NCBI RefSeq assembly: GCF_035083965.1
Contig: NC_089722.1
Span: forward strand, 27,984,642-28,048,641
Reading direction: 5' to 3'
Length of the DNA stretch: 64,000 nt
DNA from: Branchiostoma lanceolatum
Lineage: Eukaryota > Chordata > Leptocardii > Amphioxiformes > Branchiostomatidae
The number at the start of each line of letters is the position of its first letter. Position 1 is the stretch's first letter. Of the stretch, positions 23,101 through 50,332 are shown piece by piece. The notes under the pieces are model-generated. The model worked only from the letters and a program-made list of their open reading frames with translations, did not search any database and was not told the origin of the DNA. The position numbers were made by a program, and so were the translations under genes.

Positions 23101-26100
23101 GCTGCCGTCTTACCTGAACCTGTCGGCGCACAGGCCAGGATTTCTCTTCTCTGGAAAGAACACATGAATCTAAGTTTATGTCCACTCTTACCAGTAAGTT
23201 TGGTTATTGGAAAAGGAGTGTATCCTATACCTGACCCTATATGACTTCCAGCGGACCAGCAACGTGACACAAATGCTCAACGACCTGCAGTGGCCCTTCT
23301 CTCTCTCTCTTAGGAGGAGAAACGCCCGCCTCACCACCTTCTATAACTAGTGTATAATCATAAAAATGGCCTCATGAATGCAAACAAGCACTCTATAATA
23401 GACTATTCGCTATGCTATTGTGCTGATATATTGTAAGTGTGGAATACTTAAAAAAATTATTCCTGTACTAACCTGTAACATGAGTGGGATAGCCTGCATC
23501 TGAATGGGAGTGGGTTCATCATACCCCAGGCCCTGTAGGTTGTTGAGGATCTGTGGGTGGATACCGTACACTCCCTGGAGCTCCTGGAAACTGGTGACGG
23601 GGGCGGGGATGTCAGAACCCTGTACATGGATCTGCTTCTTGTTCCGAAACTCACTCAGCTAGGTAAAATTTGATAAGAAATAAGGTGGATTTAGTAATCA
23701 GTGCATGTTCAGATTAGGATATATCTGTGAATAATTTCATCAGATTGGTAAGCCATTCAAAAAGAGTCTTTTTATTCAGATTAGGATACACCTTACTAGT
23801 AACTGCCAGAAAAGCTAGAAATCTTCACAAAGCCTGAATGAAAATAAGTACAGGGCTCAAAATAATCCAGCCTAAAAAGTAGATTTGATGAAGCATTGAT
23901 CAAACTGGGGGCTAAGATTAACCATTTCAATTCTTTCTTTAGCATTTCACAGGTGGTACATTAACACTTAGTCCAGCAAACAAAAGTCTGGCTTGACTAA
24001 AAGGAAAATCAAACTCCTAGTAACCCACATGACCAGTGCCACATGACTACTGTACTACTGACTGGACCCCTAAAGCCCCTGGCAGTGAGAGACTGAGCTC
24101 CACAGGCTAACAAAAGCCACACGGATTTGTTGTATTTTGTATTATATAACCAAGTACATGGACTGGTGGTAGTCAGATGCAGGGACATGTAGACATCAGA
24201 AAGACAAAATGTACCTGGCAGTGCATAGCTCCAATTTGACCTGTACTAGCATACATATACTGTTCAAGATATGTATGCTAGTACAGGTCAAATTGAATTT
24301 ACACTGCAATATAAGACACTTGACTACAAGTCAGTATATATAAGACATTGTATAGCATACACGTCTGCACGTTTTACCTTTTCTTGTTTGATCTGCTCCA
24401 CCTTGTCCACCGTCATGTCTTTCTTTTTCCTTTTCTTCTTCTTCTTCTCTGAAGCTTTAATGTCACCGAGCAACTGTAAACTGTCTTCACTGTCATCTGG
24501 ATCAAAACCAGGAAGATATTTGGAAAAATCAGCTGGAAAAGCCAGACTTGACAAATATTAAGCTCCATATACTGTAAATGCATTTAAGTTTGTGTGGTTT
24601 TAATTTCGTGGTAGGGATAAAATGGAGTGTTCGTGGTTCACATTTGAGACAATAGTAGACGATGGGGTAGGAGGACGAAAGCTTTTGCGGTGGTTTTAAC
24701 TTTGCAGCAAGAGCTAACCGCAAAAACTGCGAAAATAAAACCACCGCAAACATTTCTGCATTTACACTGGACTCCGGCAAAAACCAATATATCTGCTGCA
24801 CTTGATATAAATGATTAACATCATTGTCACCAAAATTAGAAGTGATATGGATTTAAATGAATTTACAGTACAGTTGATAAAGTTTATTCTAACCACTGTT
24901 GTCACTGTCTGCTGCTATTTCTCCTTTCTTTTTTCTTTTCTTCCCTTTTGTTGATTGTACTCCCAGGCTATGGCTCTTCAATTCATCTGAACTCTTCTTT
25001 TTGTTTGATGTCTCTGTGCTCTTCTCATTGTCTCCAGTACTGCCTGTGACTGGTTTGCTGGGCTTCTGTTTTGATAAATTACCAAAGAAATCCAGAGCTT
25101 TGTTTGCCTCTTCTTTGGATACTGTTGGTGTGACTTGAGCTCTAATCATCTGTGAGGAAAGGAAGAAAAATACATAATTTTGAAATACACTTTGATGATT
25201 TTCCTTGTGCATTCTTTTCTTACTAAGATTAATATTAACAGTCGTACATATCTAAGTTACGACTTACAGTACGTGAAACATACGGATCAAAGGCCTAGAC
25301 GCAAATGTGTAGTAGGTGTATGACACCATGACTTCTAAACTTACAGCTCTGGACATGTAAAGAGCAAGTGTAAACATAGTCTTAGATCTTCCTTCCTGGC
25401 TGTATGGATCTACTCTACTCTATGTAACGTTAGTGCAAGGAGGTTTAAACGTTAGGTTAGTGTGAGTACAAATATTGAGTTAGGGTTTTCTCTTTATTTC
25501 CAGCAGTTAATTACTCTATGCAACGATGGCATTTTCTTCAACAAGATAAGAGTAGAGTAGAGTAGAGTAGAATTTTCGGTCAGGTAGGACTGTTCCAGTT
25601 TAGACCGCTCTTCATTGTTGAATTCCTTTTCACTCAACTGTCATGGTGGGTTTGTGTGGATGTTCCAAAGCTCTGTGGTTGTACTTAACAGGGTGAACTT
25701 CCATGTACCTGTCGAATCTGGCTTTGAAGGCATTGACTGAGGGAGCGTTGATTACTTCTTCTGGGAGTCGATTCCACCAGGGGACCACCCTGTGTTTGAA
25801 GAACAGCAACCTCCTGTTTGTTTTTGTGAATGTTCTTGTTAGCCGTAAGCTATGGCCTCTTGTCCTGGCCTCAGATTGTATCTCAGGTATGCATGGGGCG
25901 GTGTCAAACAGCCCGTGTGCATATTTAAAGGTGTTAATTAAGTCCCCCCGTAGCCTTCTGTAAAGCAGAGTTGGTAGTTTCAATGTTCGCAGTCTTTCCT
26001 GGTAGGTTAAATCTCGCAGGCCTGGTACCCTCTTAGTGGCTCTCCTCTGTACATTTTCCACCATGTCCACCATTTTCCACGTACCGGGTGACCATATTGG

Positions 26101-28043
26101 TGCTCCGTATTCGAGGTGAGGCCTCACAACGGATTTGTATAGAGTTACGAACATGACATTGTCGATGTGTGAGAATGTTCTCCAGAGCAAACCTGCCATT
26201 TTGTTGGCTTTAGATACGGCCAAAGTCACATGCTTCTCAAAAGACAGGTCACGGTCTGTAGTGATCCCTACTAGTAGGTCTTTCTCGTGGCTACTGGACT
26301 CGAGATAAACTGATTTACTAGTGTGATCCATCATATGGTATGTGAAGTCAGGGTGTTTAGAGCCGATTCGGAGCACCGTGCATTTACTTGGGTGAAACTT
26401 GAGCTGCCAAGATATGGCCCATTCTTGAAGACGGCTTAAGTCATCTTGAAGTAGTTGGCACTCCATGGGTTCACACACTGTGCGGTATAACTTGGTGTCA
26501 TCGGCAAAAAGTTTCAGCTTGCTGCTCACAACTTCCGGCATGTCATTGACAAAGAGTGTAAATAAGACTGGCCCCAGGACACTACCCTGGGGGACTCCAC
26601 TGGTCACTGGCGCCCACGACGACCTAGCCCCGTTCACGCACACTCTTTGCTTCCGTTCGTTGAGAAAAGAGCCAATCCACTGTAGTAGTTGCCCTTTGAT
26701 GCCGTAGCTTTCAATTTTAGCAATTAGGCGTTTGATTGGCACAGAATCAAACGCTTTCTGAAAGTCTAGGTAAATACTGTCCACGGGTTTGTCATCGTCT
26801 AGCCATTCCGTCCATTCATCTAGACACTCAAGTAGTTGAGTAGTGGTGGATCTTCCAGGCAAGAATCCGTGCTGGTGCACTGTAAACAAGTTATTGTTCC
26901 TCATGTGGTTTACAACTGCATCTCTGATCATACTTTCCATGACTTTACCAGCGACGGACGTAAGGCTTACAGGTCTGTAATTGGACGGCTCTTTCTTGTT
27001 GCCTTTCTTGAAGATGGGTGTAATATCGCCCGTTTTCCATTCCTGTGGTAGCCTGCCTTCCCTGAGAGATTTGGTGAAAATGGCAGAGAGTGGTACAGAC
27101 AAGGGTGTTGCCAGTTCTTTCAGAACTCTGGGATGGATACCATCGGGACCCATAGCTTTGTTGTGGTTCAGGTTTTTGAGTTTGGTGCATACTTTGTCTG
27201 CAGATAAATCAATTTCTGTGAGTTCCTCATTGTACTGTCTGCTTGTTGTATCAGGAATACTGTCAACTTTTTCCTTAGTGAAGGTACTTATGAAGAATTT
27301 GTTAAGACTTTCTGCTTTCTCAGTGTCGGTTGTTGCTATAGATGTGCCGTCAACCAGCTCAGGAATTCTCTCACTAGTTTTTGACTTTCTCTTCACATAC
27401 TTCCAGAAGAGTTTAGTGTTCTCTTTTATGTTTTTTGCCATTTGCTTCTCGTAGTCCTTTACCGATTTTCTAGCCATCCATCTTGCCTGGTTTCTTGCCT
27501 TGGTGTATTTTAAGTAGTCTTCATGGTGTTTAGTTGCAGTGTACCTCTTCCATGCCTTTTGCTTTTTATTAAGTTTATTAATTGTTTCTCTATTCTTCCA
27601 GGGTAGCTCGTTCTTCTTTTTGTACGATTTCCTGGGTATGTGTTCCTGCACAGCGGCTCTAACAGTATTGGAGACAAATGTCCAGCTTTGTTCAATGTCT
27701 TTGTCTTGTCTTGGATAAACGGTATGTGCTTTTACTGCAATCCAAAAGGCCCAACTAGCCTATACTGCCTTAGACAAATCTAGCCTAGCCTAGCTACTGG
27801 TGCACATGTACATGTGCATGCGTGCTTTGCCCCCCTCCCCCTAATTTTCTGACATACAACGGAGAGATTTCTCTCATGAAAAACCTTACAAAGTCAAAAC
27901 ACAAATGATTGATTAAGCAGACATTACAACACAACCATCCTTGTTACCTGAGAACGTTCAGCGTCTTTCCTGAAGCGTTTAGTGTCGAATTTTGCTCCGA
28001 TTCCGAGCTTACGGAAAAGTTGTAACTCCTCCGGCGCAGCCAT
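8118..28043 (-). CDS. DDX52: ATP-dependent RNA helicase DDX52 (Rok1 orthologue), 15 exons
   Basis: DEAD-box helicase; yeast Rok1 and human DDX52 act in nucleolar 18S pre-rRNA processing. Coding exons in transcript order: 28043-27948, 25149-24894, 24532-24378, 23658-23473, 23150-23007, 22743-22632, 21921-21849, 20983-20780, 20467-20377, 19852-19730, 16489-16339, 15321-15246, 11159-11088, 10114-10022, 8415-8118. All junctions are GT-AG and in phase, giving 709 residues. Motifs: Q motif about 214-226, Walker A APTGSGKT 239-246, PTREL 272-276, TTPNR 321-325, DESD 348-351 (the family's variant of DEAD), SAT 383-385, GRGID 503-507, HRIGRTGR 528-535. Residues 140-155 are a Lys-rich run. The C terminus is a long basic Ser/Asn/Lys tail encoded by the last exon, making the protein about 110 residues longer than human DDX52 (about 599). 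It is divergent from MRPL16, 294 bp away. Confidence 0.95.
9230..9431. mobile_element. CTGTAAATGCA-family MITE, copy A (DDX52 intron 14)
   Basis: About 200 bp starting near ACTGTAATGCAGAAATG and ending TACAGTA, with inner GCGAACTTAAA and CACCACGAAC blocks. It matches copies at 12351, 22396, 24570 and 57566. TA is found at both ends, consistent with a 2-bp TA duplication. No coding capacity. Confidence 0.75.
11165..12118 (+). mobile_element. LINE 3' end, interrupted by a SINE (DDX52 intron 12)
   Basis: The frame around 11201-11476 encodes the motif [11 protein letters not shown] followed by a Tyr/Arg-containing stretch, the Cys/His pattern seen at the C terminus of many non-LTR retrotransposon polyproteins. 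An AT-rich 3' UTR follows to an (ATTC)n tail at about 12096-12116. A tRNA-derived SINE splits it at 11590-11877. It is antisense to DDX52 and heavily 5'-truncated. Confidence 0.72.
11590..11877 (-). mobile_element. tRNA-derived SINE with 10-bp target duplication, nested in LINE
   Basis: Read on the minus strand it begins with a tRNA-like head: an A-box-like GGCCGAGTGG and a B box GAGTTCGAACC, with TGC in the anticodon-like position (tRNA-Ala-like), followed by a unique body and a T-rich tail at 11591-11601 (A-run on the plus strand). The 10-bp GTAGCGTTAT flanks it at 11580-11589 and 11878-11887. Related copies lie at 29401-29687, about 44330-44500 and about 56945-57360. Confidence 0.85.
12351..12554. 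mobile_element. CTGTAAATGCA-family MITE, copy B (DDX52 intron 12)
   Basis: About 204 bp, from CTACTGCAGAAATGTTCGC to CATTTACAGTA. Internal blocks GCGAACTCAAAACC and CACCGCGAACAC match the other copies. A further fragment of the family is at about 13338-13370. Confidence 0.78.
13281..13310. repeat. (GTAG)n microsatellite
   Basis: Seven or so tandem GTAG tetramers inside DDX52 intron 12. Confidence 0.9.
14514..14953. mobile_element. hAT-like non-autonomous element with 8-bp target duplication
   Basis: 440 bp starting TAGAGCTGTGTACC and ending GGTACACAGCTCTA, a perfect 14-bp terminal inverted repeat. Flanked by the exact 8-bp repeat CTTCTGAC at 14506-14513 and 14954-14961. The end TAGAG fits the hAT terminal consensus YARNG. 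The interior is full of AGGTACAGGT-type palindromes and has no transposase. It lies in DDX52 intron 12. Degraded relatives are at about 16698-17020, 19655 and 32620-32665. Confidence 0.88.
15360..15800 (+). mobile_element. LINE 3'-terminal fragment (DDX52 intron 11)
   Basis: The frame ending at 15552 encodes a tail with WNSLPPDTR and FKRLLK before the stop, the typical C terminus of L2/CR1-like reverse transcriptase polyproteins. A 3' UTR follows and ends in an A-rich AAACAAAC tail near 15780-15798. It is antisense to DDX52 and 5'-truncated just after exon 12. Confidence 0.75.
16698..17020. mobile_element. Degraded relative of the 14514-14953 element
   Basis: Contains GTGCTGTGTACCTAAATG near 16703 and TATTTTGGACCTGTACC near 17000, both matching internal or terminal parts of the hAT-like element at 14514. 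The far end and duplication are not visible. Confidence 0.5.
18110..18320. repeat. 47-bp perfect inverted repeat, 117-bp spacer (DDX52 intron 10)
   Basis: Arms 18110-18156 and 18274-18320 are exact reverse complements, and pairing continues inward with one mismatch for about 8 more bases. No flanking direct repeat was seen, so a transposon origin is possible but unproven. In the pre-mRNA this would form a long stem. Confidence 0.8.
20603..20719. mobile_element. hAT-like MITE with 8-bp target duplication (DDX52 intron 8)
   Basis: 117 bp starting TAACTTTCCAAGCAGAGG and ending CTCTGCTTGGAGAGTA, flanked by the 8-bp repeat AAGATAAC at 20595-20602 and 20720-20727. Termini and the inner AAAAACCAGCCG block match the fold-back element at 39524-39710, so both are one family; this copy is diverged and asymmetric. 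Confidence 0.85.
20999..21310. repeat. 50/56-bp minisatellite next to DDX52 exon 8 acceptor
   Basis: About six units; the landmark ATAACTGCC or a variant recurs at 21021, 21071, 21127, 21183, 21233 and about 21283, so units are 50 or 56 bp, the difference being one extra TGTATC hexamer. The array ends about 15 bp from the exon 8 acceptor, so the branch point must lie within or beyond it. It produces repetitive open frames on the minus strand that run into the helicase exon and are not real N termini. Confidence 0.9.
22396..22608. mobile_element. CTGTAAATGCA-family MITE, copy C (DDX52 intron 6)
   Basis: About 213 bp, from TACTGTAAATGCAGAAATG to TTGCATTTACAGTA, the clearest terminal inverted repeats of the family. 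TA flanks both CTGTAAATGCA ends. It sits only 24 bp beyond the donor of exon 6. Confidence 0.88.
24232..24295. repeat. 27-bp perfect hairpin (DDX52 intron 3)
   Basis: Arms 24232-24258 and 24269-24295 are exact reverse complements around a 10-base loop. No target duplication was recognised. It would fold as a strong stem-loop in the transcript. Confidence 0.85.
24570..24778. mobile_element. CTGTAAATGCA-family MITE, copy D (DDX52 intron 2)
   Basis: About 209 bp from TACTGTAAATGCATTTAAG to TTTCTGCATTTACACT, in the opposite orientation to copy C: the GTGGTTTTAA and GCGGTGGTTTT blocks appear as complements of those in copy C. Confidence 0.82.
25551..27760 (-). mobile_element. 5'-truncated non-LTR retrotransposon (CR1/L2-like) in DDX52 intron 1
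   Basis: LINE fragment in the same orientation as DDX52. Its only recognisable product is a reverse transcriptase frame (25630-27651); the endonuclease is missing, so it is 5'-truncated. The 3' end is a pentamer simple repeat, (CTACT)n on the coding strand at 25551-25570, as in LINEs that end in microsatellites. The frame continues upstream of 27651 to a stop near 27770; the exact 5' edge is uncertain and no target duplication was found. Confidence 0.88.
25630..27651 (-). CDS. Reverse transcriptase of the intronic LINE
   Basis: 673-residue uninterrupted frame. RT domain spans about residues 165-390: [12 protein letters not shown] at 167-178, DFQKAFDS at 296-303, [11 protein letters not shown] at 351-361, and the catalytic FADD at 382-385. 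After it comes a domain with [11 protein letters not shown] and a Leu/Arg-rich stretch, typical of CR1/L2-type LINEs, then a WWNRLPEEV tail. The N-terminal 100 residues are a Lys-rich linker that in complete elements follows the endonuclease. Absence of stops suggests a recent insertion. It is a retrotransposon product, not part of DDX52. Confidence 0.93.
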   Translation of the reverse strand: MQEHIPRKSYKKKNELPWKNRETINKLNKKQKAWKRYTATKHHEDYLKYTKARNQARWMARKSVKDYEKQMAKNIKENTKLFWKYVKRKSKTSERIPELVDGTSIATTDTEKAESLNKFFISTFTKEKVDSIPDTTSRQYNEELTEIDLSADKVCTKLKNLNHNKAMGPDGIHPRVLKELATPLSVPLSAIFTKSLREGRLPQEWKTGDITPIFKKGNKKEPSNYRPVSLTSVAGKVMESMIRDAVVNHMRNNNLFTVHQHGFLPGRSTTTQLLECLDEWTEWLDDDKPVDSIYLDFQKAFDSVPIKRLIAKIESYGIKGQLLQWIGSFLNERKQRVCVNGARSSWAPVTSGVPQGSVLGPVLFTLFVNDMPEVVSSKLKLFADDTKLYRTVCEPMECQLLQDDLSRLQEWAISWQLKFHPSKCTVLRIGSKHPDFTYHMMDHTSKSVYLESSSHEKDLLVGITTDRDLSFEKHVTLAVSKANKMAGLLWRTFSHIDNVMFVTLYKSVVRPHLEYGAPIWSPGTWKMVDMVENVQRRATKRVPGLRDLTYQERLRTLKLPTLLYRRLRGDLINTFKYAHGLFDTAPCIPEIQSEARTRGHSLRLTRTFTKTNRRLLFFKHRVVPWWNRLPEEVINAPSVNAFKARFDRYMEVHPVKYNHRALEHPHKPTMTVE

Positions 28044-37192: not shown

Positions 37193-39523
37193 AGATTATA
37201 CACCGGTGGAATTTTCTGTTCCAGAAATGTGTGTAGGCTGAGCTGCTGGGAGAGCGCCACCTGTCTCGTTGTCAAACAATATTGTTGAAGTGTTTTGACT
37301 AGCCGGGGTGTTTCTCTTTAAATTTCCATCGGATATCGTTTCCGCAGAAACAATCTCTTGCAGTTGTGTCGCTCACAGCTACAAGGGATTGTCACAAATT
37401 CTTACAGAAATGTTAAAAACAATAGTCATTCTTTATGTCTGAACAATACCCCAGAACTGTTTGTCGTACTTCCCATATTGTCGACATAAACGTGTATTCT
37501 ATTGACGAGATCTTCAACGTGCAACTAAGACCATTATATTCCCGTATGTCTTGGTTTACCCAAAGAGATCTAGGAACCAGAATGAACGTTTGAGACTGTC
37601 CCCTGCTCACCTTTTATTCTCTCCTTTCGCCTCTGCCTTCGACTGGCCATTGTTGATAATCCTGCCGGTCAGTCCACTGTCTAAAGCTGACCCTTTGTAC
37701 GTAATCCACTCCAGACAATGGTCAGTTGGCCGTAGAAACCCAGCGATATCATAAGACTTGACCGGAAACTTTGTAGTAGTGTATTGTTGACGCCAGTTTG
37801 TATACGGTGAAGTTGAGGTAAAGTGTTCGGGTGGTGACGATGTCGACCCTTCGTTCTTTCTAGATTACGTCAGGTTACGCTGGGTTAAACAAAAGTCAAT
37901 GGAACGTGACGAAGAAAGAAGTATAAAGCTTGATTTGCGCTAAAGAACACGTACAAACAGCGTCGAGTGTTTTATCTAATCATGGCAAAAGTTATTAATT
38001 TCAACTGTGTTGTGAATAGAGGAAGTATAGAGGGAGGACTTACTGTGGTTTATAAATCAAACGAAAGAAACTGATCGATAATGCCTGATTTTCTACGAAT
38101 ATCAACGGCTGTTTCCAATCCAACGTTGCCCCGCACGCTTTTGTAGCGTGTAAAACACAGACACTGACACACCCCTTCTCCTAACACACACACGGGGAAA
38201 AAGAAATGTCCTCCAAGAATCAAATCGATTGTGTTCACTAGCAAACGTTTATGGAAACTGCCTTACCTTAGCTATTGTTGTCACCTCACATCGCACCTAC
38301 GTAATCACGTAATACCTGATGTTCTACAAATAGTATCACTTCTTAAGTCTAGGATATCAGTGTCAATCAGAGTGGATAATTAGATTGGAAACAGGAGATT
38401 GGGTAAGCCCTGCCATTGTGTTCGTTAGCACTTTTCCCTAAGAAAATTGCATGTCAGGATTTTTACTTTTGTAAATAGTATGCTTGGCCGTGCGGGTGGT
38501 CTATTTTACGTACTGTAATTCTTGCAATTGTTTCTTTCACTGTAACTTTTAATCTATGTTTACTGTTTTTAAGGTCACCTCTGTACCGTGAACTTATTAT
38601 CACCATTAAAAACCTGTTGTAATTATTTATGATTCCTTCACACATCCGTTCTTTAAATCGCTTGCCGCCACCGTGAAGTTTAAGTTCAGTGAAAATCTCC
38701 ATTTTTTTACACCGTGAAATTTTGTTACCGTAAAGATAAAGTGAATTACTATATCATCTCTATTTCACCGCCTCAAATCTATTGTTGTAGTGCTTTTCCG
38801 AGCATTGTGTAGAAGTGTTTTGGTATCTACGCAGGATTGCTATTCAAATCCCTAATGCCTCAGTCATTGGTCTATTTCTTCTATTTAAAGAAAAACGTCT
38901 AGTTGCCGACAAGCATATAGCTTTGGGTGGGGGGGAGACTAAAGATAGATTCTTGAAGTTCTTATTGTCAGATTTTTCATCGCTGAGTCTTATATAACGA
39001 CACTCTGAAAAAATATCTGCGCTTCCATTGCAGCCTATTAGGGTGTATCAATGGTTTGCGGGATCCAACTAAATTTGCCATTCATCTTGTTAAATATTAT
39101 TATTAACGTTATGTCTGGATATCAGGTCCAAGGGAAACACAAGGGATATTTGAACATATACAAGTATATACCATAACTAGTTTATATGGTCCTTACCGAA
39201 AGGAGTATGTCTCCCATACCACCCATACAATTATATTTTATCAACGTCCACTTTGTTTGAAATACGTTACAATTGCTTGCGAATGTTTTAGATACCTGAA
39301 AGCTCGTGGTATGAAAGTAAAAACACGGGAAATTTCACCATTTATTTTTATTAGCAATACGTTATCCACAAGAGCTAAGCACTAAGCCTAAGATACATGA
39401 GATACCCACTATCGAGTGACGCCTTGCCTTTCAATCTTTTCCGTTAGATCAAATTCTCTATCACGATCATATTAAGTATGCAAATTTCACCATAGTATAC
39501 TCTCTCCGATATCTTGTCCGAAT

Positions 39524-39710
39524 TACTCTCCAAGCAGAGCTAGGGTTTCGGCTGGTTTTTAATGTGTTTTTAGGCGTTTTTGTCATGCCTTCTACTTTGT
39601 CATCGTTTTTGTTGTGTCGCAACAAAAACGATGACAAAGTAGAAGGCATGACAAAAACGCCTAAAAACACATTAAAAACCAGCCGAAACCCTAGCTCTGC
39701 TTGGAGAGTA
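39524..39710. mobile_element. Perfect 91-bp fold-back MITE, hAT-like 8-bp duplication
   Basis: Arms 39524-39614 and 39620-39710 are exact reverse complements over 91 bp with a 5-bp spacer. The 8-bp GTCCGAAT occurs directly on both sides (39516-39523 and 39711-39718). Ends TACTCTCCAAGCAGAG match the copy at 20603-20719. No mismatch in the arms suggests recent insertion or repair by gene conversion. Transcripts would form a 91-bp duplex. Confidence 0.95.
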
Positions 39711-40309
39711 GTCCGAATGCCAGCATGGCCATTTTTGTCTTCAAGAAACTAACTTTAATACCAAATATGTAGATTACATGAAACAGTTACAAGTACAGGT
39801 TGAATGTTTTAAGGCTTAGCGTTACGCTCAAGATCTTTCTGAATGATATCCAATACTGAGCCCAAATGGGCTAATGATATCATCTAAACTCGCGCCATGC
39901 CAATACAGTACTAACAATAGATGTGCCGAGCTTAAGCTTGCACAAAACAATTTTTTACATCGTCAAATGTATATATAGTCGTAAGGGTGTACTGAAACGT
40001 TAACATCCTGAATCTTAACCCACTTTTTTTAGTCTCAATATTGTCTACATAATACATTCAAATTGTGTTAATAAGACTTACGAAAATTAGGAATACCCTG
40101 CTAATCCTCTAATTCTTAGCCCACTTTATATCAAGTTACCAAACATGATGATACACCCATAAGTATCTATGAACGTCTTACTCCCAATGTTCCGTAGAAT
40201 GCCTAACCTAATCATATGTTTCACCAACATTTCCCATTGTAGCTATAGTTTACTCTCCAAGATTTCCTCCGCAACATCATGCCCGTATTTCTATCCTTGA
40301 TCGTTCTGT

Positions 40310-43300
40310 TCATGCCCCGTCGGGATACTCTCCGACTTTAAAGATGAATTTGGCGGAGGCGGAGCCGAGGTCGTTCTTCACCGTCAGGGTGTAGGTGTTG
40401 GAGGCGGTGATATTCGGGGCGACTCCCGCCTTCTGCGATATGGCGCCCGTTGCCGTGTCCAGCTCCATGAAGCCCGGCAGATCCGGCCTGATGTGCCACG
40501 TCCTGGGGTCGCTGCCGGGGTTCAGGAGGGTCGGGGTGAGCTTCTGGTCCATTTGGAAGGTGAAGAGAGTGACGTTCTCCATGCTGAGACCAACGGGCTT
40601 GGTCGAGTTCATGGACACCGCCCAGGACGGCTGGTCTTGCTCAGACGTTTCAGCGACGCTGCCGGATCCCCCGAGGTAGTACTTCTTGTCCTGAGCCTTG
40701 AACATGGACAGGCTGTAGAACTTGAAGGAGGCAGACTTCAGATGCCCGTCGGCATCCCGCTGGACTGACCCTTGACACTCGGCGACCCACTGCTGCTGGC
40801 TGACCGAATCCCCGGTCAGCTGGGTTGCTCCGGACAACTGACCTGTTTCATCAACTGTAAGGTACTTGGACACGATTGCCGTGTTGTCATCGTTAGGCAA
40901 GTTGGCGATGAACTTGGCTCTGCCGAAAGAGTCGGTAGTCATGAAGAAGACGGTGTCTGGGCCGTTTGTTGCTTGGGTGAGACTCAGGGATCCGTCTGTA
41001 TTGAACTGTAGGTACTGATCGGCCGATCCGTTCATCTGAAGGCTGATTCCCTCCTTCTCCAGTTGTCCAGTTGGCTGGTAGCTCTGGAAGCTGTCGATGT
41101 CTGCTCCATGCGGCATGTACAGACCTGCGTCGTTGGCCTGCTTCTTTGCGAAATCCTCGAGCGGAGATGGGGTTTTCTTGTGCAGCTCCACGATGAGCAG
41201 GACCACGCCAACCAAGGCAGCCGCCACAGCCAGGGCGCCCAGGCAGGAGCAGATCGCCGCGCATTCCACTCCTGCGATCTCCGCTCCCTCGGGGATCAAC
41301 CAAGATCCAAATGTCGAACAGATCTGCATGGTAGACGCCAGGACTCCCATGGAATTTCCTGCTATCTCAAGCTTCGTTTTCGATTTGCTGAGAGAGATAG
41401 AGCCAAAGACGAGCCCTAAAACAGCTAAAGAAGCGCCAAAACGAGTAGCCATGAATTCGTCAAGGTTTTTACCAAACAGAGATTCCACTAGAGCCATGTC
41501 CTCTTCGCCCGCGACAACGGCCTCTTCAGTGGCAGCAGCCGCGTCAGCTCCCACCTCTATTTCACCTCCCTTCTTCCCTAAGATCCACTTGCTGAAGCCG
41601 TTCGATGCGCGAGTAATGGACTCCTGACACTCGCCTTCGAACGCGATCTTTGCCACGTTCTTGTACTCCATTGCTTCCGTGCCGAATATCTCATACAAGC
41701 TGACGCCTCGTTTGACCAACCCTGCTGCCACTCCAGTGAACACAAGGATACCGTCGCTGACCACCTGTGCTTTCTTTGCTCCATCCAGGGACTTCCAATT
41801 CTTGACTCCGAAGTAGAACAACATGATGCCTCCACAGACGGCAGCACTTGCAACCAGTTTACCCAGCAGGTACAAGGAACCCTTTGCATACTCGTTATCA
41901 ACGTAGGTCATGAGCTTTACAAAGTTGTAGTCTCCTGTGAATTGCGAAGCCATCTTCTGAAACTGAGACAGGAGATCTTCCAGATTTTTCTGATTCAGTT
42001 TCTCTTGGATTTTTTTAGCAGCCTCTTGCATCTTTGGATCTGTGCTGTCGATGTACTTCTCCTTGAAGCCTGTCAGGATTTCATTGACCGCGTACTGGTA
42101 GTTGGTCATGTCGCCGCTGAAGTCGATGAGCTGCGGGAGGATGTTCGTCAACTGGAAGATCTGGATGATCTTGACGTACTGTTCCTGAAACACGGCGCTG
42201 TCGTCCAAGATACCGAGAATGGCGCAGTTCTGTTGGATCTGCCTGGAGAACGCCGAGCCATCCAGAGACGCGGCCCCCCCAACGGAGAGCATCTGAAGCA
42301 TCGAGAGCGCAGATGGCTGGGTGACGTCACGGAAGAACCAATAGGCCCAGTACTTCCCTTGTTGTCCTAACGCTGTCAGGCTTTCTATGATAGCCAACAT
42401 AGAGGCTTGGTTAGTGTCATCTTCAACGGTGGATTCGATCTCTTCGATCCAAGAGCTTTTGTCCTGTGCGATGTATGATGCGTACCTTGCCCTGTTTTGC
42501 ATCTGGTCAACCAGGAACTGTCCCATCCTCGGCATGTCCTGTAGCCAGTGGGTCTTGTACAGCTCCGGAGACTGAGCATTGAAAACGCTTGCTGTTGATG
42601 TCTCCGTTTTCAGCCACTTCTTAGCTCGAATAGCGTTGAGTTTCCCGGCGTAGTCGTCACTTTTCCACACATTAGGAAGTGCCTGAGCAAGATAGGCAAC
42701 ACTCAGGGTCTTGTACCAATCCCTTGCAATACCGTCGTCCCCGTTCTCTTGCTGTTCGGTGGAAGGACTGCCATTCGTGTCGGCGATTTGCTTGATCGTT
42801 GGGTCCAGGTCAGGAGCATTGCTCATCCCCATATACTTCTTCCGGAGGTCCCCATCCATGTAGTACTGTAGGATTGTGTAGAAATCATTCATAGACTTCT
42901 GCTGGAAAGCGTCGTACCACCTGCCGTTGTCATCCTTCTTGAACTGGGACATGTTTAGAAGTTCTTGGCCGTTAAGAGGTATCTGTCTTGGCGCACCAAG
43001 AAGATGTTCCTCATGTTCTTGGACATATGCCTTAACACCGTATACCTCTCCCGTGGCTGCATCGAGAGCCTTGGTCAGCATGGCGCCAGTAAACGTGGAC
43101 GCTTCAGCATTGAAGGTAAACTGAAGCAGATACGGGAAAACATGTTTCCCATCTTCTCGCGGGTTGTCAGGAACAGGAACCACGTCGTTCTCGTGTTGAA
43201 ACACCGCTTGGAACTCAGGGGTGAGAACGAAGGAAAAGTCTCCTTCTGCCGGGTTGTATGTCACGCTCGTCTGCAGATCTTCGAAGTTGACCGTGATTTT

Positions 43301-44910
43301 GTAGGTCTTCTGTCCGATGAAGAACTGCTCCTCTAAGCCATAGGTAAAGCTTAGAACATCGTCATCCCATGTAGCGTCCTTCCACGTGTCGCTTGAGTCG
43401 TCCCAGATCAACTTGAGTGCCGAACCTTCTTGTTTAACGTACGCTCCAGCGTTGCTTGAGATTGTACACTTGTAGGTGACTGGCCTCAGCGTTGCCGTCA
43501 CGGAAAAGTTAGTCTGCCCAAGACTCATGGTCCCGTACCCTCGTACGCTCTCTTCGTGAGGAAAAGCAATGTGGCCGGCATGCTCTCCGTCCTTCCAGAT
43601 CAACTTGTTGGCGGATTTGTCCCAGTTCCAGGTGCTCATAACGTGCTGGCCTACCTTCAGCTGCTGCATTCCGCCCGATGTTTTCTTCAGGGTGATGGTG
43701 TCTGGTGCGGACGGGGGTTCCTTGTCGGCGCTATGGCTAGACATCACTTCTACATCGTAGACGCGGTGTTGTTTGTCCAACAAGTTGAGCATGTTGTCAA
43801 CAGTCTGAAAAGAAAGGAAGAGAAATGTCGTTAATTTATGGCTGAGAGTACTTCTGATTACTAGTACACGTCAAGAAATCATTACATTCGTGCTATAATT
43901 GATCTAGAAAAATATGTAGGTTGTTCAAACATAGAAAGGACTAAGAAACATCTGTCATTATTATGACGATCTCGTTTTTAAAGAAAAGTAACCACCACAC
44001 AAAAGTAGGAGAAAATGTGATTTATTTCATCTTATTTTGGCCATATTTGAACTACCTGTTCTCGGTGCGTCTGTGCCTAATAAAATCACCAAGGATTACG
44101 TATATCTATATCATCACATCAAATGACACGTCGTGCCGTGGGAACAAACCCAGCTAACAAAATACAAATAGTTGCTTTGCAGGTTCCACGTGAAAAAAGG
44201 ACCGAAGAGATAACGTACTCAGAAAAGGTATCATGGCAGGTCCAGTGTACAGTCGCCTCTGTAAGCTTTTTCATGTTAAAATTCTCCCCATATCTTTCTG
44301 TGTGGAGACCCATCTCCTTTACCATCACCCTTATAGCAGGCAGGTGTGCAAGCGCTACAACAGAGGGCTAGTCCCCTGAGAGTGACGTGTGTTTAACTGA
44401 TATTCTTTCCCATAATTAGTGCTGAATGTTAAGCAGAGAATGCAGTATGTATCATTTTGCAAAGTCTTAAATGATCCCGGCCAGGATTTGACCCCTTATA
44501 CTACACATGATATACGATAGCTTCAATGAATTCTAGTCTTCTGAACATAACTGTTACAGATCGTGGAATTTCTGATTTCTGGCCAGCAAGAAGTAAAAAA
44601 AATGTAATCATGATATGAAAATGGTAACTTGAAAAACAACAACCGGAGGGAGTCTGCAACGGAGGCTAACTTTCTGATTCATTTACATAATATGTAGTAT
44701 TTATCAATAAAGTGTACATACTGTGGGCTGGGCTTTTTCTGTCTTCTCTGTCTTCTTTGTCTTGTCCTTCCCGGGCGGCCGACTTTCCTTGACCTTGCCT
44801 TCTCTTGGCTCTTCCTTGACCTTGCCTTCCCTTGGATCCTCCTTGACCTTGCCTTCTCTTGGCCCTTCCATGTAGATCGGACTACTTTTCGCACCAGCAG
44901 AGTTTCCCAT
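40310..44910 (-). CDS. Unrecognised 1227-aa protein: beta repeats, helical core, hydrophobic segments, C-terminal He_PIG-like domain
   Basis: I do not recognise this gene. Exon 1 44910-44722 (63 codons) joins in phase 0 to exon 2 43804-40310 (1164 codons plus stop). Residues 1-6, MGNSAG, resemble an N-myristoylation signal, moderately good. Residues 17-44 hold three PREGKVKE decamers, then Lys-rich linker. About 110-250: two beta-rich repeats, each with W-D residues and a Y/F-G pattern. About 330-690: alpha-helical. Hydrophobic segments about 710-730, 745-760, 852-868 and 910-937, possibly membrane-inserting. About 970-1145: beta-rich with KYLTVDETGQL, beta-trefoil-like. About 1152-1222: matches the He_PIG putative Ig fold (LPGFMELDTATGAIS, YTLTVKND-GSAS), mostly bacterial in distribution. 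No secretory signal. The long single exon and short added first exon suggest acquisition by transfer or retrocopy. It is divergent from the Hint gene at 47364. Splice model good; function unknown. Confidence 0.8.
44330..44500 (-). mobile_element. SINE fragment, family of 11590-11877
   Basis: Contains the body blocks GGGCTAGTCCCCTGAGAGTGACGTG-like and AAGCAGAGAATGCAGTATGTA (spans about 44364-44453) and a decayed CCCGGCCAGGATTTGA end. The tRNA-like head is lost. Confidence 0.65.
44640..44672. mobile_element. Solo end of the TAGCCTCCG MITE family
   Basis: TCTGCAACGGAGGCTA at about 44654-44669 matches the right terminus of the element at 5654-5801 over 14-15 bp. The other end is absent. Confidence 0.5.
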
Positions 44911-46405
44911 GTTGATACCAGATCCTCGTCAGTATTTTGAAGAACTTCGCAGTTGCGATTCTAGAATAACAAGGGTTGACCGGTCAGTTAGATCGTGCAT
45001 TTTTTCTAAACAAATCACAAAACTAATGTCCGTCATGAAGATTAAAGATGAGAAACTTGACTTATTCGTTTTCAGTCGAACTCGACCAAGCACACCAATT
45101 CCAAGTCACCTCCCAGTCTTCTCGGTTTTTCTTACGTTCAGAGGTATATATAAACAATATACATTATATAATGTCCTTGATATAAATAATTCAAAAACCT
45201 TCTGAAAAGCGTCAAAATAATATCGATTACAGCATTATCAAATCGTTACCAAAGCTGTACTAAACTTAAGTTTGTTTACCGTCACCATGGCAACATTTGT
45301 TGGGCCAAATGTTTGATCTACAAATTCATCGGGATTTTCGTGTTCACGATGTTATTATCTGTCTTACTCATTTCTGATCCAAAGAACGTAATCGTAATCT
45401 ATGCTGCGACTGGTGGCATAAGTATATATGATATTTGTACCCGGTTGATTCTCGAGCTCCGTCCTGTCCAATGTTCTTTTCAAACACATTTTTGTCGATC
45501 CGATCAACATAGTCCACTGATAGCCAAACATGTACACTGGAGGAGGAAACATACGTTATCTAGCACCAATACTGATGAAATAAATCTATAAAGATGGCAT
45601 AAAAACTGGTTTATCTCACCTCGTACTTCCTGAGTCGAAGCGTTCCGCTGAACTCGCCGTCCAAAAAAAAGACGCTCCCGAACTGGTGTGACGCCTTTTG
45701 ACTGTACTTTTAATTTTAATGACATGCAGTCTTCGAGGTGGAATTGGCGATAATCAGTCTCTCTCGAGAGATGACAGGGTGTCCTGGGAGAAAAGTAGCA
45801 ATACGCCTTTCCATGCGGTCTAGTGTAATTAATTAATTAACATAATTACTTGAACAGGGCGTAATGATAATACAGACAAGTCTTCTCTTATTCAAGTCTG
45901 TGAATAAAACCATAATTTTGTCCCTTTTTCAGTTATTTGCTATGAGATTACAAAGTAATACGTATCAAATCTATCTAGATTATTTTTCATCCTCCTGTCC
46001 CTTGGCAACAGGTAATAATTAGTGAAGTTGCCATAGTGAACAATTAGAAACGATTAGTATTCTGTTATCTTTGGGCGGAGTGGTAATTTTGTTTGTTTGT
46101 GCCCTAGTCAAGACAACTCCATGTGAAAAGAATGTATAAATCACCGCATGATGATGCTTTAGAAAAAAATTCACGGAAACAATTGCAATCAACTTGAATT
46201 GGAAAACTGTTGTGCAATTAATCTCCCCCAACTTGTAATATGTGCGAAAAAGACAACTCGCCCACTAACTAATGGCAGTTCAAAATGGTGTTTGACGAAA
46301 TTCATTTCTTTCCAGAAACAATTTTTCTTGTAGTCTTGAATTTGTTGTGAATGAGTAAGCCTGCCTGGCCTTCTCATCTTCATTTAATTTCTTTAATACA
46401 CCGAA

Positions 46406-46609
46406 TCAAGAAGGTGACTTTCTTAATTTCTTCATAACAAGATAGCCAGAGCTCTTGCAATCTAAAATAAAGCCACTCCCATCATCTTTTTTATAATTAG
46501 ACGTCCATGTCATCCCAAGCAAATTTCCGGTCGCACAGGTCCAGTTAGCTCCGGACCCGCCTACCCAGAAAGTCCGGTGCGTCGTTTTCCATACCAAAGG
46601 TAAGCTGAA
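46406..46609 (-). other. Possible terminal exon, unassigned
   Basis: A TTTCAG acceptor precedes 46609; the frame reads through a Gly/Trp/Cys-bearing stretch (WVGGSGANWTCATGN, then GFILDCKSSGYLVMKK) to a stop at 46406. ATTAAA occurs just downstream. Composition looks protein-like, but no upstream exon with matching phase was found. On the opposite strand 46502-46600 is also open and ends at AAAG|GTAAGC, so strand is uncertain. Confidence 0.3.
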
Positions 46610-46891
46610 ATATGTTTATTTTCATTCAAACGGGCTTTGCTTATACAGTAATCAGTTATGAGAAGCTGACAATTTTATTTGTGTGGTGATGGTGGTGGGG
46701 TGAGTTATCCTCCCAACTTTGTACGTATTATAAAGATCATATGTTTACTCAATATTGGTTATCATACCTAAGCAACGCTTACTTGATTTATCAATGATCT
46801 CCACGGACGCTTCGGTTTTCACCGATTCAAACAAATGCCCCATTAGACTCTACAGGCAAGGACAACACAACCGTCAAAACAACCCGAAAAT

Positions 46892-46975
46892 TAGCCTGGA
46901 TGCCAGACCCCCAAACTCTAACATATCTACTGTTTGATAGATATTTCAAAGTTTGGGGGTCTGACATCCAGGCTA
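46892..46975. mobile_element. 84-bp MITE, TAGCC ends, 9-bp target duplication
   Basis: Starts TAGCCTGGATGCCAGACC and ends with the near-exact reverse complement (GGTCTGACATCCAGGCTA); imperfect pairing continues over about 37 bp. Flanked by CCCGAAAAT (46883-46891) and CCCGAAAGT (46976-46984), one mismatch. Ends and duplication length resemble the elements at 5654 and 60162. Confidence 0.85.
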
Positions 46976-47363
46976 CCCGAAAGTTAGCTATCAGGTCGAA
47001 TTATTCTGAAACAAGACAAGCTACATTTGTGTACCTCATGAAAGAACAAAACAACAGACGCATTGTTTGTTGTACCATGCTCTGTGTGTTTAAGTTTTTC
47101 AAACCGCCATAATCACTTAATCAAGGTTAGATTTAAAAAATATTTTTTTATTGTGCAGCTTTTTTTTCTCTCGCCCGCTCGCACCAGAATTATTTGGGCT
47201 ACCTGTCAAGTCACCCTGGCCTTATCTTTAAATTTCAAGACAAAAATGTGCAAGACAAAGCTATATACTGTGACATTCTGATACTTAATAGTAAAGTTCA
47301 CCTTCTAGGTAAAAAAAAGTAAACTTCGCGTCGGTGCCGACTTCTGTGAAACCGTCATTCAAG

Positions 47364-50332
47364 ATGGCCGCCATGGAACCCGGCGTGAATGAGGTAAGTT
47401 ATGTGTGCACGTCCAGTAAAAAACAACTAGTAGCTGGTATAAACATTATACCCACCTACCAGTACTGCAATTTCTCAAATGTATAGTCATGGTTTGGTTT
47501 GATTACCTTTACCTACAATGTTATGTTATGTTTTGGGTAGCATATCACGGTGTTTGTGGTTATTTTGTTTATTCACCTATTGTTTACTACTGCACAACGC
47601 ATGCGCTAGCCATTACAAGAAGCTAGCCATTTATGGATTGTTATGATAGTCGGTACATGAACGTGAGTAGGTGTTGACTGAACAACAAAACAAGTTCCGG
47701 CGATTCTGCATACATGGGCGTGGTGACTTTCTATGGTACTGCAGTGGAACTTCTGGTTTTGATATCTCACGTTTTGAATATGCTATGGCCATTGATTTTA
47801 GTACTGTAGTAGTTTTACATAGCTGTTATGCTGGGGAAGAAGTAATGTTGATTTGGTTCTAGTCTGGACAATTGTTGTGCAATAATCAGCACATCACGTT
47901 ATATATATTCACGGAGGTATGGGATAGTGGAACATTAGTGTGATTGTACTATATCAACCTCTCCTTTTCTATCCATCCAGATGTTCGACCTGCTGCCAAC
48001 ACCAGGCGGGAATAACTCCGGTAAACCGGCCCGTAAGGCCCTCGTCAGTAAACTCAAAGCGTCCACACCAGGCCGACACACAGAGGCGTTCGGAAAAGGA
48101 GACACCTTCCGAAAAATCTTCTTTCCCAACTACAAGTCGGCCCCTTACGAGGGGAACACTTCCATCATCGGCCTAGACAATAAGTGGTGGTCCGATTTTT
48201 CCACAGCAGTTCTTTGTCAGGCCATGTACAACCTGACGAGCGATCTGAGAAAGCAACTGAAAAAGGACGACATCAACAACGCTGTGAACAGGAAAAACTC
48301 CGACCTGAAAAAGCACGGTATGACATTCTACGCTAAGGTTTTCTCTGAGACTTTCATCAAAGCTCCTTACAATTCAATACAGAACAAGAAATCGGCGAAA
48401 GCTCAGTACATAGAGGCACTGACGTCTGATGCATGGATAACGGCAAAGAGAGCGGTTGCTTCAGAAGGTATGTGGACAGACGCAGCATGGGAGCTGTACC
48501 ATCACTGGGTAAAACTACACCTGCTCGGCGCCAGCAATGGAGAGATAGACGGCATCATCAAACAGCTCAGCGACAAGGAGCTGATGATCCCACCGGAGGT
48601 AGGAGCGGGGAACTGGACCAGCTACACAGCCTGGATGAACCCAGCGGCAATCACATGGCAGGACATTCATGGCGACGCCGCAAAGGGAATCCTGAAGTCC
48701 GAAATGATGCCGTCTTATGGACCGTACGGTAGACCCTCTAGCATGAAGGAGGAAAACTCTTTCGAGTTCACGGCAAACGGACAGCCGGGGAAGGGGTACC
48801 GTCACACTGGTGGCAGCGGTGGCCATGGTGGCAGTTGTTTCATGGGGGACACGAAGGTACTCATGGCAAACGGCAGTCTACTGCCCATCCGCTCTGTAGA
48901 GGTTGGTGACGAGGTTTTCACTCTCCAGGGACCACGCCGCGTTGCCGTCACATCAATGCCAACCAGGAAGAAGCGCCATCTTTACTCCCTGAACGGTTAC
49001 TCCTTCAGGTTCACTGAAACTCATCCGTTTGTGACACCAGCAGGACTCCGTGGTGGTGGAATGGATAGCGCTGCACATGCGTTTACTGCCGTTTCCCCTA
49101 GGAAACTGGCGAATCTTGTACCGACTCTCTCCCGTCTAGGCATCGTTAAGATGGAGGAAGGGTCGATCATTATGTCTCTACAAGACAAACAACCTCATCC
49201 GACTGCAGTGTATCTCGTCGAGGAACATTCCCTCCAGAAACCTGAAAGTGAAGAAGACCTTCTGTACGACTTGATATTGGAGCCCACGAAAGATGGATTT
49301 CCAAATTACGTTGTTGGTGACGACAGCATCCTGGTATTAGTTGCCTCTGAGGTACCACGGATCGAGCTCGCTCCCTTCGCAGCGATCACCATACTTAAAG
49401 CACTACAGGAAGCCGCAGACCAGATTGAGCGACAGCCTCTACCTGTTAACCGCGGGGAACCCCCATCCCGAGTCCCGCATGTTTTCCACGTCTTCTCGCC
49501 AACAAAAGCACTAGTATCCAATGTCAACGCTATGACTACACTCTTAAAGACGAAACAAGCTGAATCTTGCGATGTTTCAGACATGTTGTCAGTCTTTGTT
49601 AAAGAGGATACCGCGTCAGAACAAGCGTCGTATCGACGTGAACTTGGGGATGCGTATGAGCAGATAGCCGCTGTCCATGGTGAAGAGATAGACGCCGTCG
49701 TGGATCTCGGTTTCAGGTCAATGGGCCAGGACGAAGACGACAAAAATCCACTGTTGTTATCTGTCTCCCTGCTAGACATCATCTTTCACGACCTTCCAAA
49801 ACACAGTCCCGGCCAACGTCTTGCTGTGAACATTGAAGCAAGAACGGCTGAAGACAAGACCGACAAAGCATGGTGCGAAGAATCCAACGACAAAATCAGC
49901 TCCCACTTTGCTCGACATTTCCGACAGGTGTTCTACTTTGAGAATGTGGACAAAGACGACGAAGGTCTCATCGACCTACGTTTCCAGGTCCATGACACTG
50001 AGAAAAGTCAACCCCTGCCTTACACCGCCCATGTAGTCGTCCCCTGTGAGTTTGAACACAACTACCGCATGTTTGAGGCCATCCTTCACGAAGAAGGCGA
50101 TCAGGAGATCGGACTGCTACGTTTCGATGTGAGATTTCTCAGCACTAACGCGATGCAGGAAGAACAAAGGCGTTCCGAGACGTGGAAAGATGCTGACAAG
50201 CAAGCGTATGCATGGGCGCTTGGTAAGTGCTACGGTGAATATTTGAAGAAGGAACTTCCAAATCTCCGTGGCCATGGGCTGGTGCCCGTAGCCAAAAGGT
50301 CGTGGTTCAAATGTTCGTGTTTCAATGCTTAA
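47364..50332 (+). CDS. Unrecognised 793-aa protein with internal Hint (hedgehog/intein-type) domain
   Basis: Exon 1 47364-47393 (MAAMEPGVNE, start in AAGATGGCCGCC) joins in phase to exon 2 47981-50332 through GAG|GTAAG and CCATCCAG|ATG. Residues 1-290: a helical Trp-rich region with no family I recognise. A Gly-rich linker (TGGSGGHGGS) leads to the Hint domain at about 296-465: Cys296 in SCFMGDTKVLM, PIRSVEVGDEVF, block-B motif TETHPF at 355-360, and LLYDLILEP...NYVVGDDSILVLV near the end. The C-terminal His-Asn of splicing Hint domains is absent (LVLV instead), so only the N-terminal acyl shift, if any, seems possible, as in Hedgehog. Residues 470-793: unknown, with a beta-rich part near 610-745 that may be C2-like; ends in CSCFNA, a possible lipidated Cys tail. 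No signal peptide, unlike Hedgehog. Hint domains of this CF-x-GDT form are common in bacterial polymorphic toxin proteins, so transfer is plausible. Function unknown. Confidence 0.85.

What the first reader, a model, noticed from the sequence alone, without database searches (positions are those of the whole stretch)
40310..50332. Divergent pair of unrecognised large genes with bacterial-flavoured domains
Seen: two opposing genes, each a short first coding exon plus one uninterrupted exon of 2.4-3.5 kb, amid neighbours with 4-15 short exons. One has hydrophobic segments and a He_PIG-like C terminus, the other a Hint domain; neither has a secretory signal, and their termini suggest lipid attachment (MGNSAG; CSCFNA). 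Known: He_PIG and CF-x-GDT Hint domains are mostly prokaryotic. Inference: the pair may have been acquired together by horizontal transfer, gained eukaryotic first exons, and may act together at a membrane.
Basis: partly seen in the sequence, partly recalled or inferred. Interest (0 to 1): 0.85.

Follow-up and report, generated by a model that had tools for sequence, protein, structure and literature searches.

The report
Bacterial two-gene cassette in amphioxus
Two neighbouring amphioxus genes are relatives of two genes that sit side by side in scattered bacteria, one for a protein predicted to cut itself and one for a protein that probably inserts into membranes, so a whole two-gene bacterial unit seems to have entered the animal lineage and been kept.

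Summary
Gene 1 (minus strand, about 1,227 aa) and gene 2 (plus, about 793 aa) each have a short first exon and one long exon carrying all detected bacterial homology. Relatives of both lie side by side in bacteria: all 9 loci found with the gene-2 profile in a bacterial/archaeal genome collection have gene 1 directly upstream, as do both plasmid hits. The two families co-vary (14 pairs, r = 0.84), so they travel as one unit. Ptychodera flava apparently has both on one contig. Joint acquisition from bacteria is well supported; donor, route and number of transfers are unresolved. Gene 2 is modelled as a helical domain, a Hint autoprocessing domain (catalytic Cys kept, terminal splicing Asn replaced by Ser) and a C2-like domain. 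Gene 1 combines β domains, a long helical region with conserved hydrophobic segments, a β-trefoil and an Ig-like tail. Most likely mechanism (inferred): gene 2 cleaves or transfers its N-terminal domain at Cys286 and works with a membrane-inserting gene 1. One of two amphioxus copy pairs carries candidate lipid anchors on both partners.

The parts
44722..44910 (-). Gene 1, coding exon 1 (63 codons): MGNSAG start, candidate N-myristoylation signal, then three copies of a charged (E/D)PREGKVKE-type repeat
   Evidence: Sequence and donor site; same start in P0042, P0043 and P0044. Myristoylation is a recalled motif rule, not tested.
40310..43804 (-). Gene 1, exon 2: the whole bacterial-type protein (1,164 codons plus stop)
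   Evidence: Open frame; homologues along the length in bacteria, 25-40% identity
43022..43765 (-). Gene 1 N-terminal beta-strand region (about residues 10-257 of the 1160-aa ORF)
   Evidence: AlphaFold2 model, secondary structure
41174..42910 (-). Gene 1 helical region with conserved hydrophobic segments near residues 651, 684, 794 and 859 (ORF residues about 295-873)
   Evidence: Model (most of residues 704-873 under pLDDT 50); hydropathy across 21 rows, segment near 859 hydrophobic in 21 of 21
40604..41098 (-). Gene 1 beta-trefoil domain (ORF residues about 899-1063)
40334..40516 (-). Gene 1 C-terminal Ig-like (He_PIG-like) domain (ORF residues 1093-1153)
   Evidence: Pfam He_PIG 19.2 bits against a cut-off of 24; Gloeothece homologue annotated 'putative Ig domain-containing protein'
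47364..47393 (+). Gene 2, coding exon 1 (10 codons, MAAMEPGVNE); the start could lie further upstream
   Evidence: Sequence, GTAAGT donor; similar starts in P0002, P0003, P0007, internal in P0001
47981..50332 (+). Gene 2, exon 2: the whole bacterial-type protein (783 codons plus stop)
   Evidence: Open frame; 34 non-Branchiostoma homologues at 26-40% identity, 29 of 34 covering at least 91% of the query
47981..48805 (+). Gene 2 N-terminal, mostly helical domain (residues 1-275), ending in the conserved EENSFEFTANGQPG..YR motif and a Gly-rich linker
   Evidence: Model, alignments
48836..49348 (+). Gene 2 Hint domain (residues 286-456): Cys286, Thr345-x-x-His348, Asp430, Ser456 at the position of the terminal intein Asn
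49751..50143 (+). Gene 2 C2-like domain (residues 591-721)
50318..50329 (+). Gene 2 C-terminal CFNA, candidate CaaX box
   Evidence: Cys at position -4 in 4 of the 5 copy-a gene-2 proteins (window, P0001, P0002, P0003); the fifth, P0007, is a truncated model that lacks the C terminus. Prenylation not tested.

Best explanation
The locus is a domesticated copy of a two-gene bacterial cassette that entered an ancestor of living amphioxus (Branchiostoma) as one piece. SHOWN: both genes have bacterial homologues along their length that are neighbours; the two families co-vary; in amphioxus the pair is duplicated (pairs a and b) and conserved across species. INFERRED: gene 2 is a self-processing protein. 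Its Hint domain forms a (thio)ester at Cys286 and, lacking the terminal Asn, cannot splice; it therefore releases its N-terminal helical domain or transfers it to a nucleophile, as Hedgehog proteins do, while its C2-like domain docks on membranes. Gene 1 is the membrane-inserting partner: its hydrophobic helices enter a bilayer and its beta-trefoil and Ig-like domains bind a surface ligand. Processing of gene 2 licenses or delivers gene 1. In amphioxus the proteins act inside the cell (no secretion signal apparent) and pair a was tethered to membranes by added lipid-attachment termini, most plausibly as a host defence or cell-death effector.
Against: Gene 1 shows no whole-protein structural relative: Foldseek has no match at E <= 0.001, and its hydrophobic helical region is modelled with low confidence, so 'membrane insertion' rests on hydropathy. 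Helical regions with hydrophobic segments are common. No experiment shows that the Hint domain cuts. His348 is Gln in 3 of 48 rows. One genome (G048) has a gene-1 remnant without gene 2 nearby. The two trees do not agree everywhere: Corallococcus gene 1 groups with the plasmid copies, its gene 2 does not. No defence family matched except a weak homing-endonuclease hit that reflects Hint, and identified neighbours in bacteria are mostly metabolic, transport or regulatory genes, so defence is one guess among several. Expression and function in amphioxus are unknown.
Confidence: 0.6

Rival explanations
1. The pair is an ancient eukaryotic or ancestral gene pair kept in amphioxus and hemichordates and lost in most animals; no transfer from bacteria to animals in the deuterostome line.
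For: Ptychodera flava has both genes, on contigs of equal length, and 15 homologues of unnamed origin, several on contigs of hundreds of kilobases to megabases, group with Ptychodera gene 2 (17-row clade, support 100/99), so the eukaryotic spread may be wider than amphioxus. One animal clade is not rejected for gene 1 (AU p = 0.356). The protein searches scored about 8,000 candidates each, so absence elsewhere is weak.
Against: Homologues occur in Bacillota, Pseudomonadota, Myxococcota, Actinomycetota, SAR324 and cyanobacteria, with deep branches, while the named animals in the two hit lists are Branchiostoma and Ptychodera only. The homologous coding region in amphioxus is one exon. For gene 2 the clade uniting amphioxus with the Ptychodera-containing group is mildly rejected (AU p = 0.039; the group was chosen after the tree was seen).
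Confidence: 0.2
2. The cassette is a bacterial two-component toxin or effector aimed at other cells (lectin-like beta-trefoil, membrane-inserting helices, Hint-released part), and animals co-opted it as an extracellular or intracellular weapon.
For: Architecture; sparse, patchy occurrence; transposase and recombinase genes beside the Pantoea copy.
Against: No secretion signal was apparent by eye at the N-termini seen for the bacterial proteins (no predictor run); no immunity gene or secretion-system gene recognised among the 20 neighbours scanned; no toxin family matched above threshold for the window proteins in Pfam and NCBIfam or for the window and two bacterial pairs in PHROGs.
Confidence: 0.25
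3. The cassette is an anti-phage or anti-invader defence module of bacteria.
For: Patchy distribution across phyla, two-gene self-contained unit, location about 3.4 kb from type III-B CRISPR genes in Gloeothece, resemblance in logic to protease-activated membrane effectors (recalled).
Against: No PADLOC family matched except the generic homing-endonuclease model at weak score (window and two bacterial pairs); the other neighbourhoods scanned show no defence gene apart from a PIN-domain ORF and a KAP NTPase near two loci; rare in genomes sampled: full-length gene 1 in 1 of 40 (genus of the Paenibacillus strain) and 1 of 369 (class sample), each time the query locus itself.
Confidence: 0.25
4. 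Gene 2 is an intein-carrying host protein: the Hint domain is a selfish intein inside an ordinary enzyme.
For: Automatic annotation as 'Hint domain-containing homing endonuclease'; best PDB sequence matches are inteins.
Against: The residue at the terminal-Asn position is Ser 43, Pro 3, Ala 2 of 48 rows; the Hint segment is about 171 residues, with no room for an endonuclease; it is present in all 48 rows apart from local gaps in two gene models, whereas inteins are sporadic at their site (recalled).
Confidence: 0.05

Closest known systems
Hedgehog C-terminal (Hog/Hint) autoprocessing domain
   Different: Different N-terminal domain (mostly helical, no secretion signal apparent), no sterol-recognition region identified, C2-like domain after Hint, linked partner gene
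VWA-Vint proteins (Vint, PF14623)
   Same: The Hint domain scores with Vint; precomputed Vint annotation is listed for many homologues and the diverged copy L040 passes the cut-off (34.8 against 27 bits)
   Different: No VWA domain matched; the window protein itself is below the cut-off (24 against 27); bacterial, with partner gene. The 2008 paper thought Vint genes lacking in Metazoa (PMC2362128, passages seen)
Bacterial intein-like (BIL) domains
   Different: Terminal Asn replaced by Ser; fixed domain architecture and linked gene 1
C2 membrane-binding domains (dysferlin, phospholipase C, synaptotagmin-like)
   Different: No C2 family match in Pfam; calcium ligands not examined
Helical membrane-inserting proteins with lectin-like trefoil tails
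   Same: Order of hydrophobic helical region, then beta-trefoil, then Ig-like tail in gene 1
   Different: No specific family matched in sequence or fold over the helical part; comparison is by architecture and recalled knowledge only

Membership tests
Hint/Hedgehog-type autoprocessing domain | Hint fold | tested here: met
Hint/Hedgehog-type autoprocessing domain | Catalytic first Cys, T-x-x-H, block-F Asp | tested here: met
   Cys286 47 of 48 rows (one gap); Thr345 40 of 48; His348 44 of 48; Asp430 48 of 48. Residue roles recalled
Hint/Hedgehog-type autoprocessing domain | Self-cleavage or transfer at Cys1 | not testable with these tools
   Needs protein expression
Intein | C-terminal Asn (or Gln/Asp) and splicing of exteins | tested here: not met
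   Ends of the structural alignments place residue 456 on the last intein residue (for example 440 of the Mtu RecA intein, 454 of PI-SceI; that these are the Asn is recalled); Ser 43, Pro 3, Ala 2 of 48
VWA-Vint | VWA and Vwaint domains before Vint | tested here: not met
   No VWA match in Pfam at E up to 1; helical N domain in the model
He_PIG Ig-like domain (PF05345), gene 1 | Pfam gathering score | tested here: not met
   19.2 against 24 bits; weak resemblance only
C2 domain, gene 2 | C2 beta-sandwich fold | tested here: met
C2 domain, gene 2 | Calcium or phospholipid binding | not testable with these tools
   Not measured
Beta-trefoil, gene 1 | Beta-trefoil fold | tested here: met
Known anti-phage defence system | Match to a PADLOC model of a defence gene | tested here: not met
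   Only a weak generic homing-endonuclease model for gene 2 (E 0.0003-0.07); 6 proteins scanned: the window pair and two bacterial pairs
Phage-borne gene pair | Homologues in phage or viral contigs | tested here: not met
   No relative in viral contigs (77 pattern matches, none confirmed) or the phage collection at those sensitivities; gene 2 only
Pore-forming protein, gene 1 | Match to a known pore-forming fold | tested here: inconclusive
   Hydrophobic helical part poorly modelled; fold lists filled by the trefoil

The most novel reading that the evidence does not exclude
An undescribed, self-contained two-protein module, a Hint-autoprocessed C2 protein plus a membrane-inserting trefoil protein, moves as a unit between bacterial phyla and was captured whole by a chordate lineage, duplicated there, turned head-to-head, and given lipid anchors on both partners to serve as an intracellular immune or cell-death effector. 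It would be a case of an entire bacterial operon becoming a working animal gene pair.
Probability: 0.3. Interest if true: 0.88.

Novelty: new variant of a known kind. Interest (0 to 1): 0.74.

Why it matters
Transfers of single bacterial genes into animals are often disputed. Here linkage gives an independent argument: two unrelated proteins that are neighbours in several bacterial phyla are also neighbours in amphioxus, duplicated and conserved over the genus. It also defines a scattered, unnamed two-gene bacterial system of unknown function, built around Hedgehog-type self-processing chemistry, which could be tested in bacteria and in a chordate. Some bacterial gene-2 copies are labelled 'homing endonuclease' in public records, apparently because of the Hint domain alone.

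Tried and rejected
Intein hypothesis rejected (no terminal Asn). VWA-Vint membership rejected. Phage origin: no relatives of gene 2 in viral contigs or phage records. Contamination rejected (spliced exons, several species, contigs of megabases). Base composition as transfer evidence rejected: the 2-kb windows over the exons are 50-52% GC, those next to them 36-40%, which is also usual for animal exons (recalled). Shared ancestry of genes 1 and 2 tested by profile comparison: not significant (probability 0.2; at best 2.5 among five domain comparisons), although a short W(W/Y)xx(F/L)SVAxLxQx(M/L) stretch recurs. A third gene in the cassette: none shared; 20 flanking ORFs of 9 loci scanned, 15 with a family; ORFs were picked by length, so some in GC-rich genomes may be in a wrong frame. 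BFVD comparison for gene 2: the informative top matches are Hint proteins. The third protein search, with gene-1 profile A4, added one homologue (P0053) and a set of Ig-tail hits; it scored 7,994 candidates and missed the known members P0048 and P0050, so absence from it means little. PDB profile search for gene 1 gave three designed trefoils at E 0.04-0.08. The genome search scored only the first 2-10 candidates per genome in the larger sets, so its negatives are soft. Literature: nine searches gave no paper on this pair in the rows listed; subscription papers and preprints are not held. Papers: PMC2362128, PMC12373286 and PMC6006793, passages only; the others, listings only. PMC12373286 describes HINT domains in other amphioxus proteins (CARD plus AIG1), a different gene family. 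Reports of transfer-derived genes in hemichordate genomes are recalled, not read.

Full report
WHAT IS THERE. The two long exons are real and placed as stated. Joining them to their first exons by canonical phase-0 splice sites gives gene 1 of 63 + 1,164 = 1,227 residues and gene 2 of 10 + 783 = 793 residues; P0001 suggests that gene 2 might start a little further upstream. The start codons are 2.45 kb apart, head to head. The closest named relatives are B. lanceolatum Hypp488 (98% identity) and Hypp489 (95%), with consecutive names and on contigs of the same length; in B. belcheri the pair is Bbelb_173200 and Bbelb_173190, again with equal contig lengths. The window is therefore amphioxus, close to B. 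lanceolatum. Neighbouring stretches hold animal-type pieces: an L16 ribosomal-protein exon and an MFS piece among ten ORFs scanned, a reverse transcriptase ORF and a GPCR-like ORF.

A SECOND PAIR. Branchiostoma has a second, paralogous pair (b): gene 1b P0045-P0047 at 61-66% and gene 2b P0004-P0006 at 61-64% to the window; P0004 and P0047, and P0005 and P0045, share contig lengths. Only pair a occurs in the window. Both trees show the duplication with full support. Pair a alone carries MGNSAG on gene 1 (4 of 4: window exon 1, P0042, P0043, P0044; 0 of 3 in pair b) and Cys at position -4 of gene 2 (window, P0001, P0002, P0003: CFNA twice, CFSM, CFNM; P0007 is a truncated model without this end; pair-b P0004 and P0005 end in LDNSG, P0006 in VKLS). 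That they are lipidated is not shown.

BACTERIAL HOMOLOGUES ARE ADJACENT. A gene-2 profile scanned over one genome per bacterial and archaeal species gave 25 pattern matches, of which 9 were confirmed: Paenibacillus macerans, Microbulbifer taiwanensis, Corallococcus sp., Rhizocola hellebori, Actinocrinis puniceicyclus, Burkholderia cepacia, Pseudomonas guryensis, a SAR324 MAG and Saccharopolyspora rosea. In 9 of 9 a gene-1 homologue of similar length lies immediately upstream on the same strand; Corallococcus has gene1-gene2-gene1. Both plasmid records found by protein search (Gloeothece, Pantoea) also have the pair. The reverse test started from gene 1. Of 96 genomes in the family of G003, 14 have a match: along the whole model in 2 (G003, G041), partial in 3 (G042, G048, G011), and to the Ig-like tail only in 9. 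Gene-2 matches occur in 41 of 96, over nearly the whole model in 3 (G003, G041, G042); the other 38 show only the Hint segment, as expected of other Hint proteins. All 3 have gene 1 next door; in G041 the order is gene2-gene1, and in G042 gene 1 is a shortened form of 881 aa. G011 holds a diverged set, two ORFs with weak gene-1 similarity and a Hint region within about 7 kb. G048 has a gene-1 remnant with no gene-2 match within about 8 kb, against the rule. Elsewhere the cassette is rare: gene 1 along its length in 1 of 40 genomes of the genus of the Paenibacillus strain and in 1 of 369 of a class sample, the query locus itself each time; the other matches there (2 and 4 genomes) are to the Ig-like tail region.

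CO-INHERITANCE. Identity matrices of gene 1 and gene 2 over 14 pairs (two amphioxus pairs, Ptychodera, nine bacterial loci, two plasmids) correlate at 0.84 (Mantel p = 0.0001); without the second amphioxus pair and the two plasmids, 11 pairs, 0.64 (p = 0.0004). Both trees join Paenibacillus (Bacillota) with Microbulbifer (Gammaproteobacteria), and Burkholderia with the actinobacteria, so the unit moves between phyla. They do not agree everywhere: Corallococcus gene 1 groups with the plasmid copies, while its gene 2 does not, and several placements are unresolved. The neighbourhoods share no third gene: glycosidase, transporter, regulator, peptidase, glycosyltransferase and radical SAM genes were seen, with 5 of 20 ORFs unmatched.

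DIRECTION AND NUMBER OF TRANSFERS. Amphioxus forms one clade in both trees, attached among bacterial lineages by unresolved branches. Ptychodera flava has both genes, and equal contig lengths (44,297,253) place them on one contig at unknown distance. For gene 1, amphioxus plus Ptychodera is not rejected (p = 0.356). One or two entries, and the donor, stay open. An old eukaryotic origin with many losses is the main rival.

HOW IT PROBABLY WORKS. Shown: linkage, co-variation, predicted domain folds, conserved catalytic residues. Inferred: gene 2 is made as a precursor, its C2-like domain brings it to a membrane, and the Hint domain cuts before Cys286 or passes the N domain to a nucleophile; gene 1 inserts into the membrane, guided by its trefoil; the two steps depend on each other, which would explain the fixed pairing. 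A role in attack, defence or cell death fits the architecture and patchy spread, but nothing here proves it.

NOVELTY. The Hint domain, C2 fold, beta-trefoil and gene transfer into animals are known kinds. The two-gene cassette and its capture by a chordate did not appear in the rows listed by the nine literature searches made, which cover open-access full text only.

Noticed in passing
44722-44910: Gene-1 exon 1 is a coding tandem repeat of charged PREGKVKE-type units, three here and more in B. lanceolatum P0042: a variable-length linker behind the candidate myristoylation site.
   Followed up: partly
25630-27651 minus: ORF of 673 aa with a reverse transcriptase domain (RVT_1, E 2.6e-32): a retroelement.
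   Followed up: partly
503-2626 plus: ORF of 707 aa with a sub-threshold 7tm_1 match (24.8 against 30.5 bits) at its end.
   Followed up: no
39519-39715: Inverted repeat with 96-nt arms, 98% complementary, 5 nt apart, just downstream of gene 1; possibly a fold-back element.
   Followed up: partly
helical regions of gene 1 (ORF residues about 356-374) and gene 2 (residues 66-84): A similar W(W/Y)xx(F/L)SVAxLxQx(M/L) stretch occurs in both otherwise unrelated proteins; profile comparison is not significant (hhalign probability 2.5).
   Followed up: partly
L010 9290-20420: In Gloeothece the cassette lies about 3.4 kb from type III-B CRISPR (Cmr) genes on a large plasmid.
   Followed up: no
L011 3246-13035: In Pantoea the cassette sits between an ISNCY transposase and a tyrosine recombinase gene on a plasmid, a possible route of spread.
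   Followed up: no
L003 6058-16293: Corallococcus has gene1-gene2-gene1, two diverged gene-1 copies around one gene 2.
   Followed up: partly
proteins P0018, P0019, P0025, P0031, P0034, P0035, P0037: Some gene-2 homologues without organism name share contig lengths in pairs (P0018/P0031, P0019/P0025, P0034/P0037), which suggests several copies per contig; P0018 and P0034 have short Cys-containing N-terminal additions. Possibly a further eukaryotic expansion.
   Followed up: no
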